Assembly: GCA_012518185.1 (NCBI GenBank)
Contig: JAAYTA010000048.1
Location: forward strand, 1 to 41,232
Direction of reading: 5' to 3'
DNA: 41,232 nt
Source: Methanobacteriota archaeon
GTDB lineage: Archaea; Thermoplasmatota; Thermoplasmata; Methanomassiliicoccales; Methanomassiliicoccaceae
Position 1 is the first letter of the stretch. Each line of letters starts with the position of its first letter. Under the pieces are notes generated by a model. It was given only the letters and a program-made list of their open reading frames with translations, was not told the DNA's origin and ran no database searches. Positions 10,310 to 23,696 of this stretch are shown here, one piece after another. The position numbers and the translations under genes are program-made.

Positions 10310-11230
10310 ATGAGATCCCCGTCTACGATCGTCCTTACCATAGCGACAATTGTAATGATGATAGCTATGGTATTTCAGGCATCTGCCTCATTCAATGAGT
10401 CAGTTTCAGATGATAGGATCAACGCATTAGTAACAATTGCTCCACAACAGAGAATGGTTGAAGCCATTGGAGGAGAATATGTTTATGTAACTCTAATGGT
10501 GCCATCTGGACAAGATCCACATAGTTATGAGCCTACATATGGAGACATCAAGACGGCAGCATCAGCAGACATATACTTCAAAATCGGCTCGGACATTGAT
10601 TTTGAATTAACTAAAATGAATACATTGATAGAAGTAAATCCTAAAATGGAGATTATAGATTGTTCAGAAAATATCGCTCTAATCGAGCAAAGAGATCACC
10701 ATCACCATCATGGAGAGGAGGGTCATGGCGAAGGAAACGATCCCCATATTTGGCTATCTCCAAAAAATCTAAAGCAGATGGCTAGGAACGTGTGTGATGG
10801 CCTAATAGCACTAGATTCTGAACATTCAGAGGAGTATGAACAAAACTTCAAAAATTATGCGATAAATATGGACTCCCTTCATGAGAGAATCAGCTCTGAA
10901 TTAAGTCCTTATCGGGATGAGGAGTTTATGGTATTCCACCCTGCCTGGGGCTATTTTGCTAAAGAATATGGTCTGAATCAAATAGCCGTAGAGCAGGAAA
11001 AGCAGAATCCTGGACCGAGAGGATTATCAAACATTATAGATAGAGCCAGAGAACGGAATATACACGTGATATTCATATCTCCTCAGATTGATGATAGGGG
11101 AGCTAGAATTATAGCAGATGAAATTAGAGGAGAAGTAGTTTCCTCAGATCCGCTATCTCCCGATCTTGAAACAGAGTTATTCGATTTAGCCATAATAATG
11201 TCAAAAGGCTTCAACGGACAAAGAGGGTGA
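10310..11230 (+). CDS. Metal ABC transporter substrate-binding protein (ZnuA/TroA-like)
   Basis: This cluster A-I binding protein captures a divalent metal outside the cell. The 306-residue product has a signal or anchor segment at about 5-27. Metal ligands by family alignment are His71 (DPHSYEP), His146 (DPHIWLSP), His210 (FHPAWGYFAKEYG) and Asp280 (SSDPLSPD). A His-rich loop (130-139, five consecutive His, then acidic residues) precedes the second ligand, as in zinc-binding ZnuA. Zinc is thus the default guess, but divergence from a NikR-type gene leaves nickel or broader specificity open. It is the first gene of a three-gene transporter operon. Confidence 0.92.
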   Translation: MRSPSTIVLTIATIVMMIAMVFQASASFNESVSDDRINALVTIAPQQRMVEAIGGEYVYVTLMVPSGQDPHSYEPTYGDIKTAASADIYFKIGSDIDFELTKMNTLIEVNPKMEIIDCSENIALIEQRDHHHHHGEEGHGEGNDPHIWLSPKNLKQMARNVCDGLIALDSEHSEEYEQNFKNYAINMDSLHERISSELSPYRDEEFMVFHPAWGYFAKEYGLNQIAVEQEKQNPGPRGLSNIIDRARERNIHVIFISPQIDDRGARIIADEIRGEVVSSDPLSPDLETELFDLAIIMSKGFNGQRG

Positions 11231-20561: not shown

Positions 20562-22184
20562 ATGCGAACTAAGATCTTAGTAGTGACACTAATACTGATA
20601 ATGAGCTTGATAGTCTCACCGATCATATTATGTTCGGCTTCAGTAAATATTTCTGCCAGTGAGAAATCATTAATACAAATAATCTCCCCAAATGAGAATT
20701 TTATTGATGATAAAAACGTTACAATAATATGGAAAATTGATCCTTCAATTGAATATTATACTATATGGATCGATGGTAAGGAACTAGGCAACGAGATCAA
20801 TATAGCAAATGAAAGTATAACATTAGAACTTGAAGATGGCCCCCATCATGTAACGATACTTGCAGGAAGTAATACTGCTGCCTATATTGACAACACCTCT
20901 TTCTTCGTAGATACCAGTTATCCGGAATTGAACATATATTATCCGCACAATGAAAGCATCCTCAACACTAGTAATGTTACTATTAATTGGAAAGCATTTG
21001 ATACATCATCTATAGTCAACGTTGAGATAGAAATATCGCTAGATAATGAGCCACTAGTAATAGATTCAAAAGATATGGATACTAACAACGACACCTTCAC
21101 ATTATACGATCTAGAAGATGGAGATTATGAAGTATCTATTACGGTAACCGACGGCTCAGGCAAGCACACACAACAGGCCATCGAATTCTCGATCGATAAT
21201 ACTGTCCCAACAATAGAAATCATATCTCCCTCTGATGATATAGGAATTTATGACAATAATATAACTATAGAATGGCTAGCTTGTGATGAAGGTGACAATA
21301 TCATTGGCTACGATATATATGTCAATAGAGCTTATCATACGACTGTTGCACCATCTACTAATTTAATTCACTTTAGCCACTTGATGGATGGAGAATATGT
21401 AGTAGAGGTTATTGCAATAGACTCAGCTAATAATACAGCCAGGAGCAATATATCATTCACAGTTGACACCGAAGAGTTCATGGTAATCAATACTTCTCCT
21501 ACTAATGACGCTCTTAAAAATGTCTACGTTAGTATAGAATACTCCAAAGACATAAATCAAGATGCTAGTAATATATTATTGTCAAATAATAATAAATTGA
21601 TCAGTGGAGTGGTGAATTGGGATGGAAATGTAATGACATTTACTCCAGACACTCCTCTGGAGCTTGGAATAACCTATGAAGTATACACTACTGCTGTAGA
21701 TTATAGTGGGAAGAGGCTGGATCATAAATGGGCATTCAACACTACTACTATGTCATATGTCAGCGGATTAATAAAAAATGCTGATGGAACTCCACTGACT
21801 GATGCCAGAGTGTATATACTCGGTACCAACGGTCCAAGCACGATGACTGATGAGCAAGGTCATTTCCGGATAAAAGTTTCTCCAGGCAACCAGACGTTAT
21901 CTATATCAAAGTCTGGCTATGTCACTCGATCTATACCCATTAATACACTGCCTGGAGATGAGAAAATAATGAATCCAGTGCAGCTAACTTCTACCGAACT
22001 AATAGTCACTGTAGGATGGATAGTTGCTATCATAGCTACTATCTTTGTGATTGCTATATATTATTTCAAAAGAGGCGGGAAAGAACGGCACAGGATGATT
22101 CGATTATCAGTCAGAAGTCAAGGAAAAGAGACATCCCGCTCATGGAAAAGAATGGAAGAGCCAAAAAATCGATATCGACGATAG
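20562..22184 (+). CDS. Large secreted membrane-anchored surface protein with Ig-like repeats
   Basis: The 540-residue protein has a signal peptide (about 1-27). Three Ig-like repeats of about 90 residues follow, each opening with a P-x-I-x-I-SP or similar strand (near 40, 125 and 218). Next come a bacterial-Ig-like segment (SPTNDALKNVYVSIEYSKDI, near 308) and a carboxypeptidase-regulatory-like domain (SGLIKNADGTPLTDARVYILGTNG). Near 485-505 is one membrane helix, with a basic cytoplasmic tail rich in Lys and Arg. Many N-x-S/T sites indicate glycosylation. It is probably an adhesin or cell-envelope protein of unknown ligand, transcribed alone. The extracellular part has almost no Cys. Confidence 0.85.
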   Translation: MRTKILVVTLILIMSLIVSPIILCSASVNISASEKSLIQIISPNENFIDDKNVTIIWKIDPSIEYYTIWIDGKELGNEINIANESITLELEDGPHHVTILAGSNTAAYIDNTSFFVDTSYPELNIYYPHNESILNTSNVTINWKAFDTSSIVNVEIEISLDNEPLVIDSKDMDTNNDTFTLYDLEDGDYEVSITVTDGSGKHTQQAIEFSIDNTVPTIEIISPSDDIGIYDNNITIEWLACDEGDNIIGYDIYVNRAYHTTVAPSTNLIHFSHLMDGEYVVEVIAIDSANNTARSNISFTVDTEEFMVINTSPTNDALKNVYVSIEYSKDINQDASNILLSNNNKLISGVVNWDGNVMTFTPDTPLELGITYEVYTTAVDYSGKRLDHKWAFNTTTMSYVSGLIKNADGTPLTDARVYILGTNGPSTMTDEQGHFRIKVSPGNQTLSISKSGYVTRSIPINTLPGDEKIMNPVQLTSTELIVTVGWIVAIIATIFVIAIYYFKRGGKERHRMIRLSVRSQGKETSRSWKRMEEPKNRYRR

Positions 22185-22259: not shown

Positions 22260-22450
22260 CATAATTAAGCAGTCCCTGGGACTGCTATTAAAGTAATTAA
22301 TAGGAGCAGGATGAACGCGAGCACGTATATTGGCCCTCGTCCGACACTTACAGTCTCTATCCTGCTCCTGAACGTCTTTTCCCCCCCAGATTCTCAGCGA
22401 GTCCCGTGGACCTCGCAGATTATACTTTGGAGCATCGGCTACATATAGGT
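22260..22450. other. GC-rich structured island between convergent genes; candidate non-coding RNA
   Basis: The 306-base gap between the surface-protein and DUF1015 stops holds a block clearly richer in G and C than its surroundings. Elements in order: a perfect hairpin AGCAGTCCCTGGGACTGCT (22268-22286); an 11-base stem AGGAGCAGGAT (22302-22312) / ATCCTGCTCCT (22359-22369) enclosing 46 bases that can form two small helices; T4 followed by C7 (22377-22387); and a hairpin GCGAG...CTCGC (22397-22416). Both strands could be transcribed (TATA-like ACCTATATGT on the minus strand at 22441-22450). It does not match tRNA, the SRP RNA core or RNase P motifs I know. A 45-codon reading frame overlaps it and is listed separately. 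Confidence 0.45.
22311..22448 (+). CDS. Possible 45-residue small protein inside the GC-rich island
   Basis: An ATG at 22311 opens a 45-codon frame beginning MNASTYIGPRPTLTVSILLL and ending SIGYI before TAG. GGAG at 22303-22306 is four bases upstream, a possible ribosome-binding site. The middle is hydrophobic (TLTVSILLLNVF). Against it: its codons use far more G and C in the third position than the neighbours, the opposite strand is also open over the same stretch without a start codon, and the region folds strongly. I keep it as a low-confidence alternative to a non-coding RNA. Confidence 0.22.
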   Translation: MNASTYIGPRPTLTVSILLLNVFSPPDSQRVPWTSQIILWSIGYI

Positions 22451-22490
22451 ATTCATATTGTTTAATAATATCTAATTAGATAATGGAGTA

Positions 22491-23696
22491 TTATTTCATT
22501 CCATATAATATAAATCCAGACCATATTTTTGGCCAGAAATATGTAGTCTTTTTTGGCATCTTTTGCCCTTGTTCGGCAACATTCCATACCAGGTCTAAAG
22601 ATGGAGCACGTACCACTATTGCTAAATCTGCTCCTCCTTCAGACATGCGATTAGCTATGGAAGTAACTTCGTGATCATACTCGACGCTAAGCTCATTAAC
22701 ATCTGTCATTGATGATAAAATATTCTTGAAGATTACTTCTTGGCAGACATAAGCATCGACTGACCATAAAACACCATCTTGCACTTGGAGATACTCTGCA
22801 GTGTAAATATTTCCGTCATTCAGAAATAGGCCGAAAATAGGCAATGTAGAACTGTCAAGATTTTTCTCCATTTCTTCTATATTCTTTATTTTCTGAACTT
22901 TAAAATATTTTTTCATATTTTCAAGCAGATCAGTAGGCTCATAATTCAGATTCCCTATCAAGCGATGGGTAGGAAGGACGAGCATTCCATCGTCATTGGA
23001 TGCCACCATGGTGCATAGGACATATGCTTTATCGCGCTCATCTCTATTTTCCTGTGCATAGCGGTGAGCGGTTTCATAACGATGATGACCATCGGCAATT
23101 AACATCTTTTTTGAGGAAAACATCTCTTGTATGGCAGATGTATCATTCACATCATGTATGCGGAAGATCTGGTGAAGAGTGGAAAAGTCGTCAACTATCT
23201 CGAATAGTTTATCTGCACGCTCGGAAAGATTTTCAAGATCTATATCTGAATAATCATAAAGTCCGAAGATAGATTCGCAATGAGTAGCAGTTGCTCTCAG
23301 TAGGTTGAGTCTATCCTCCTTCACATTTGAGAATGTCTCCTCATGAGGCATTATGATCCCTTTATTATAATCCTCTGTTTTTAATATGCCAATTATGCCA
23401 TTTCTAGAGAGTAATCCTTTTTGTCCTTGGAAACTCTGGCGATATAAATAATAACATTCAGAATCATCTTGCATTAGTTTTTCTGAGGATATCCATCCAT
23501 CTAGCAACCTTGCTGCCTCATCATATCTGCCGTCAAGACCTCCAAGAGTTATGCGAGAAATATTATATTCTTTACTCTGCAGCTCCGCCTGCTCCTCTTT
23601 AGAGATTACATCATATGGAGGTGAAACACGCTCATTTATGTTCTCGTCACTGCCCACATATGGCAGGATACCACGGAAGGGACGAAAATCTACCAT
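22491..23696 (-). CDS. DUF1015 family protein
   Basis: The 401-residue protein matches the DUF1015 pattern: an N-terminal PFRGILPYV followed by RVSPPYDVIS, a central FGLYDYSDID region, and the histidine-rich ADGHHRYETAHRYAQE segment. The family is widespread in archaea and bacteria and has no firmly established general activity; the conserved DGHHRYE motif suggests an enzyme active site. The gene is transcribed alone, divergent from dedA with 106 bases between. Its 3' side faces the GC-rich island. Confidence 0.85.
   Translation of the reverse strand: MVDFRPFRGILPYVGSDENINERVSPPYDVISKEEQAELQSKEYNISRITLGGLDGRYDEAARLLDGWISSEKLMQDDSECYYLYRQSFQGQKGLLSRNGIIGILKTEDYNKGIIMPHEETFSNVKEDRLNLLRATATHCESIFGLYDYSDIDLENLSERADKLFEIVDDFSTLHQIFRIHDVNDTSAIQEMFSSKKMLIADGHHRYETAHRYAQENRDERDKAYVLCTMVASNDDGMLVLPTHRLIGNLNYEPTDLLENMKKYFKVQKIKNIEEMEKNLDSSTLPIFGLFLNDGNIYTAEYLQVQDGVLWSVDAYVCQEVIFKNILSSMTDVNELSVEYDHEVTSIANRMSEGGADLAIVVRAPSLDLVWNVAEQGQKMPKKTTYFWPKIWSGFILYGMK

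What the first reader, a model, noticed from the sequence alone, without database searches (positions are those of the whole stretch)
22260..22450. GC-rich, strongly folding island between two convergent genes: candidate new non-coding RNA
Between the surface-protein and DUF1015 stops, where no promoter for either flanking gene is needed, lies a block much richer in G and C than the surrounding DNA. It contains a perfect hairpin (22268-22286), an 11-base stem closing a 46-base loop with two possible inner helices (22302-22369), a T4C7 tract and a second GC-rich hairpin (22397-22416). In AT-rich archaeal genomes such islands are often structured RNAs. It does not match the RNA families I can recall.
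Basis: partly seen in the sequence, partly recalled or inferred. Interest (0 to 1): 0.6.

Follow-up and report, generated by a model that had tools for sequence, protein, structure and literature searches.

The report
Hidden gene for tiny membrane protein
The GC-rich folding block is mostly not a non-coding RNA: read on the other strand it is an unannotated gene for a membrane protein of about 31 amino acids, kept by one family of methane-producing archaea, and in one genus its start signal is hidden in an RNA stem that evolution has preserved.

Summary
The main interpretation changes. Read on the minus strand, 22360-22265 encodes a small single-pass membrane protein (31 aa...YVLAFILLLLITLIAVPGTA*). 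It sits in the same place beside the DUF1015 gene in 11 of the 15 held genomes of the family, and was found nowhere else among the sampled genomes of the class. Coding is strongly supported: pN/pS is 0.30 in frame, 0 of 1000 column shuffles reach that, and third codon positions vary most. The "perfect hairpin" is a by-product of the conserved V-P-G-T codons, which are self-complementary. The 11-bp stem is probably real RNA structure: it buries the ribosome-binding site and start codon against the ORF's own I-L-L-L codons, and the only three codons with invariant third positions in the genus lie exactly there. The hairpin 22397-22416 lies in the predicted 5' leader and shows one compensatory change. 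An upstream operator (TATC-N6-GATA) and promoter element are shared with a large surface-protein gene. This genome's copy has ATA where every relative has ATG, so its start here is uncertain. Function is inferred, not shown.

The parts
22265..22360 (-). ORF of a 31-aa single-transmembrane microprotein: (I/M)ETVSVGRGPIYVLAFILLLLITLIAVPGTA*, stop TAA 22265-22267; first codon here ATA (22358-22360), ATG in all relatives
   Evidence: Homologues at the same place in 10 further genomes; pN/pS 0.30, 0 of 1000 shuffles
22361..22369 (-). Shine-Dalgarno-like segment AGGAGCAGG directly before the start codon
   Evidence: GGAGCAGG invariant in six genus members
22302..22312 (-). 3' arm of the 11-bp helix that hides the ribosome-binding site; codons for I-L-L-L (ATC CTG CTC CTA)
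   Evidence: Only codons 17-19 have invariant third positions in the genus
22359..22369 (-). 5' arm of the same helix: ribosome-binding site plus first two bases of the start codon
   Evidence: 11 pairs, 100% paired in six genomes; 9 pairs never vary, 2 vary on one side only
22269..22285 (-).
   Evidence: Codon table; pairing partly broken in relatives (helix 4, 85.7% of cells paired)
22397..22416 (-). Leader hairpin GCGAG-G-UCC-ACG-GGA-CUCGC with an almost invariant top; basal stem has one compensatory G-C to A-U change (G005) and two G.U variants
22381..22387 (-). Conserved G-tract in the leader (the plus-strand C7 tract)
   Evidence: a G-tract also occurs in the leader of the surface-protein gene that shares the promoter elements
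22440..22450 (-). TATA-like element ACCTATATGTA of the predicted promoter
   Evidence: Conserved in the genus and recognisable in sister genera; assignment inferred
22426..22433 (-). GCTCCAAA element between the TATA-like box and the predicted transcript start
   Evidence: Also in the surface-protein promoter
22464..22482 (-). Palindromic operator-like site TATC-N6-GATATTATT
   Evidence: 33 sites in 14 genomes against 2 for the reversed control pattern; stands before the microprotein gene and the surface-protein gene

Best explanation
The island is a small minus-strand gene. Shown: an ORF of 31 codons (37-38 in sister genera) encoding a short polar N-terminus, one hydrophobic helix and a C-terminal V-P-G-T/S motif is under purifying selection at a fixed chromosomal place in the family. 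Supported: in this genus the mRNA can fold so that the ribosome-binding site and start codon pair with 11 bases of the ORF, and this pairing is conserved at synonymous sites. Inferred: the gene is transcribed from its own promoter behind the DUF1015 gene; its translation is kept low until the stem is opened (by ribosome entry, a factor, temperature or refolding with the leader hairpin); the product is a membrane-inserted accessory or regulatory peptide expressed together with a large surface protein that shares its operator and promoter elements.
For: Homologous ORF at the same place in G000-G005, G007-G009, G012, G013 (G005). pN/pS 0.30 in frame; variable columns by codon position 15/11/28 of 31; 0 of 1000 column shuffles reach the ratio. 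A 19-residue stretch with mean hydropathy 2.7-3.3 in every member. Third codon positions vary at every codon from 2 to 31 except 17-19, exactly the arm facing the ribosome-binding site (1 in 4060 if placed at random). Helix paired in all six genomes. Leader hairpin with one compensatory change. Operator and GCTCC element shared with the surface-protein gene.
Against: This genome has ATA instead of ATG, and its codons 2-10 are relaxed (pN/pS 0.59), so the local copy may start elsewhere or be losing its N-terminus. The stem has no compensatory pair and is absent in the sister genera. With codons drawn from the genus pool, 1.5-4% of recodings reach the stem length, so the single-genome evidence is modest, and the pool itself is shaped by these sequences. 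Start-site accessibility is clearly lower than in recodings in only some genomes, and low also in some sister-genus members without the stem. No expression data were available.
Confidence: 0.82

Rival explanations
1. A non-coding RNA (small regulatory or guide RNA) occupies the block, and the ORF is incidental.
For: Strong folding and conserved helices; the leader blocks GGTCCACGGG and GAATCTGG are more conserved than the ORF; no ATG start in this genome.
Against: In-frame pN/pS 0.30 with a third-position excess; the protein stays recognisable in sister genera where the RNA helix is lost; no Rfam match.
Confidence: 0.06
2. A type I toxin-antitoxin-like module: a small hydrophobic toxin whose start site is sequestered in its own mRNA, kept silent by an antisense RNA from the plus strand.
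For: Size, single hydrophobic helix, occluded start site.
Against: Single copy at a fixed chromosomal place; no antisense RNA or promoter for one was identified; the occluding stem is limited to one genus; purifying selection at one place across a family fits a resident accessory peptide better.
Confidence: 0.06
3. Add-on to the main explanation rather than an alternative: in this particular genome the gene is decaying or restarted. ATA is not a start, and either nothing is made or a shorter peptide begins at GTG (codon 13).
For: ATG to ATA at the start; conserved A-H-x-R-R lost; codons 2-10 relaxed (pN/pS 0.59) while 11-31 remain strict (0.18); GTG at codon 13 only in this genome.
Against: A gene long dead would not keep codons 11-31 under strong constraint. 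A single-base error in this draft genome of 139 contigs would also explain ATA. Weak initiation at AUA is possible.
Confidence: 0.3
4. The hairpins are transcription terminators of the two convergent genes.
For: Position between two convergent stops.
Against: Conserved coding signal and promoter-like elements within the block; no run of T directly behind the main stems on either strand except the T4 behind the 11-bp stem on plus.
Confidence: 0.03

Closest known systems
Membrane-associated small proteins of methanogens, e.g. MtrR (49 aa) of Methanosarcina mazei (PMC13370731)
   Same: Small, long-unannotated gene of a methanogen; membrane location expected; plausible regulator of a membrane complex
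   Different: No sequence relation tested or claimed; partner and role unknown here
Bacterial type I toxins (e.g. DinQ, PMC3567139; LdrA, PMC12643268)
   Same: Short hydrophobic peptide; here too the start site lies in an mRNA stem (general property of type I toxin mRNAs from own knowledge)
   Different: Single-copy syntenic archaeal gene; antisense RNA and toxicity unknown
Start-site-occluding mRNA stems (RNA thermometers, translational riboswitches)
   Same: Ribosome-binding site and start codon paired with a complementary arm
   Different: The pairing arm lies inside the ORF; no ligand or trigger known; no Rfam match

Membership tests
Known RNA family (Rfam 15) | Score at or above the curated gathering cut-off | tested here: not met
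   only tRNAs elsewhere in the window; best match in the block 16 bits against 65 needed
Protein-coding gene | Frame-specific purifying selection | tested here: met
   pN/pS 0.30; 0 of 1000 shuffles; third-position excess
Protein-coding gene | Recognised start codon behind a ribosome-binding site | tested here: inconclusive
   ATG in 10 relatives, ATA in this genome
Known small-protein family (Pfam, NCBIfam) | Match above the curated cut-off | tested here: not met
   nothing near a cut-off
Type I toxin-antitoxin system | Short hydrophobic toxin-like peptide | tested here: met
   (hydropathy and length)
Type I toxin-antitoxin system | Start site occluded by a helix across the family | tested here: not met
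   Perfect 11-bp helix in genus g1 only; longest complement 4-6 bases in sister genera
Type I toxin-antitoxin system | Antisense RNA antitoxin | not testable with these tools
   needs strand-specific RNA-seq
Type I toxin-antitoxin system | Toxicity on overexpression | not testable with these tools
   needs an experiment
RNA thermometer or translational riboswitch | Conserved helix pairing the ribosome-binding site | tested here: met
   (genus g1 only)
RNA thermometer or translational riboswitch | Ligand- or temperature-dependent switch between folds | not testable with these tools
   needs structure probing and reporters

The most novel reading that the evidence does not exclude
An archaeal regulon in which a palindromic operator (TATC-N6-GATA) jointly controls a large surface protein and at least two unrelated families of roughly 25-38 aa membrane microproteins. 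One of these is additionally gated by an RNA stem formed between its start site and its own codons, possibly as a toxin-like or envelope-modulating peptide, which would be a new example of translational self-control in archaea.
Probability: 0.15. Interest if true: 0.7.

Novelty: new member of a known kind. Interest (0 to 1): 0.42.

Why it matters
It shows how a GC-rich folding island in an AT-rich archaeal genome can be a missed microprotein gene, and why codon palindromes (V-P-G-T) imitate RNA hairpins. The gene family is not in Pfam or NCBIfam. The conserved pairing between a start site and the ORF's own codons makes translational gating in uncultured methanogens a testable proposal, and the shared promoter elements point to envelope biology.

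Tried and rejected
Rfam search, strict and permissive: nothing. tRNA or tmRNA in the block: none. Guide-RNA boxes judged by eye: no D-box-like CUGA is conserved in the genus alignment. A longer N-terminus (ESGG..KTYGSR) upstream of the start: rejected because a one-base indel shifts the frame there between relatives although the DNA is conserved. Leader motif GGTCCACGGG elsewhere: 17 matches in 14 genomes against 9 for the control, 6 of them this locus, so no sign of a wider leader family. TATC-N6-GATA without its extension is not enriched in the window (2 found, 2.4 expected), so the operator claim rests on the longer form and on its repeated position; about 20 of the 33 long-form sites lie elsewhere and were not explained. 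Papers on AUA starts in archaea: nothing useful. No structure prediction was run, as a single short helix would say little.

Full report
Observation. The block lies between the stops of a plus-strand gene for a protein with Ig-like and carboxypeptidase-regulatory domains (20562-22184) and a minus-strand DUF1015 gene (22491-23696). GC is 0.52-0.54 over 22300-22449, flanked by 0.23-0.35. Both strands fold better than shuffles (z -2.4 and -2.7). No Rfam family matches.

Relatives. The DNA is conserved (73-79% identity over the matched parts) in all five other held genomes of the genus, at the same place. Record titles of matching contigs name Methanomassiliicoccus sp. UBA386 and UBA345, Methanomassiliicoccales archaeon RumEn M1, DTU008 and AS22ysBPME_74, so the window belongs to the Methanomassiliicoccales, class Thermoplasmata (for RumEn M1).

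A gene on the minus strand. Extracting the gaps and reading them on the minus strand gives in every genus member a 31-codon ORF such as METAHQRRWSIYFLAFILLLLITLIVVPGTV*, and in sister genera a 37-38-codon ORF ending in the same V-P-G-(T/S)-x (alignment A1). A profile search of 150 relatives finds it in 11 of 15 genomes of the family; the few other matches are weak and lie inside much longer frames. 400 genomes sampled across the class give none outside the family at E 1e-4. Two sister-genus genomes (G010, G011) have only 40-49 bases between the flanking genes, so the gene is absent there. Pfam and NCBIfam do not know it.

Coding test. Within the genus pN/pS is 0.30 in frame. Variable columns at codon positions 1, 2 and 3 are 15, 11 and 28 of 31. 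None of 1000 column shuffles reaches the ratio (mean 0.87, minimum 0.49), and only 12 of them are free of stops in all six sequences. All members carry a 19-residue stretch with mean hydropathy 2.7-3.3.

What the hairpins are. The 22268-22286 hairpin is the A-V-P-G-T-A codon run. GTN CCN GGN ACN is self-complementary, and in relatives part of the pairing is broken (helix 4). The 11-bp stem pairs the ribosome-binding site and start codon (AGGAGCAGGAT, minus strand 22369-22359) with the codons ATC CTG CTC CTA. In the six genus members every third codon position from codon 2 to 31 varies except codons 17, 18 and 19, which are exactly the codons in this arm; three invariant positions placed at random would fall there once in 4060. 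All 11 pairs are kept in all six genomes, 9 without any change and 2 by change on one side. There is thus no compensatory change, and the helix is missing in sister genera. Computed accessibility of the start site is low in the genus (0.05-0.20 unpaired), but differs clearly from synonymous recodings in only some genomes. Gating of translation is therefore likely in this genus but not proven.

Leader and promoter. Upstream of the ORF is a leader with a hairpin (22397-22416) whose top is nearly invariant and whose basal stem shows one compensatory change (G-C to A-U in G005) plus two G.U variants. Further upstream are GCTCCAAA, a TATA-like element and a palindrome TATC-N6-GATATTATT. The palindrome with its extension occurs 33 times in 14 genomes against 2 for the reversed pattern. 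Besides this gene it stands before a surface-protein gene of about 660 codons in several genomes, where GCTCCCAA and a G-tract also recur at similar distances. Co-regulation is an inference from this.

The local copy. This genome reads ATA where all ten relatives read ATG, and it has lost the conserved A-H-x-R-R. Codons 2-10 are relaxed (pN/pS 0.59) while 11-31 are strict (0.18). A sequencing error, weak initiation at AUA, or restart at the GTG that is unique to this genome at codon 13 are all possible.

Mechanism. Most likely a short membrane peptide, transcribed behind DUF1015 from its own regulated promoter, with translation restrained in this genus by the start-site stem. The membrane helix and the selection on it are shown; the restraint is supported by synonymous-site conservation; the partner complex and the signal are unknown, and the link to the cell surface rests on the shared promoter elements. 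Small membrane proteins that tune membrane complexes are established in methanogens (MtrR, PMC13370731), and archaeal small proteins are proportionally often membrane-bound or secreted (PMC11364881).

Verdict. The finding is real. It is best explained as an unannotated microprotein gene with structured mRNA, not as a new non-coding RNA.

Noticed in passing
G000:C106:10305-10376 and 10575-10661, minus (L188); G004:C36:42338-42421 (L189); loci L204-L213: Downstream of the surface-protein gene lie one or two copies of a second, unrelated microprotein family (MFKFTYLKVCAVVALTYIAISWGYFNGL*), found only in this genus among 61 genomes, with a strong ribosome-binding site and the same TATC-N6-GATA palindrome upstream.
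   Followed up: partly
G000:C106:10893-12890, minus (L190): A predicted secreted or membrane-anchored protein of about 660 aa without a Pfam match shares the operator and promoter elements of the microprotein gene.
   Followed up: partly
window 22464-22493: The operator-like palindrome lies only 8 bases behind the DUF1015 stop codon, so the DUF1015 3' end and the promoter of the next gene are tightly packed.
   Followed up: no
L035 1089-1488 (G006): In the most divergent family member the same gap is very AT-rich, lacks the microprotein, and holds a different GC-rich inverted repeat (GCGCAGGGGAA...TTCCCCTGCGC).
   Followed up: no
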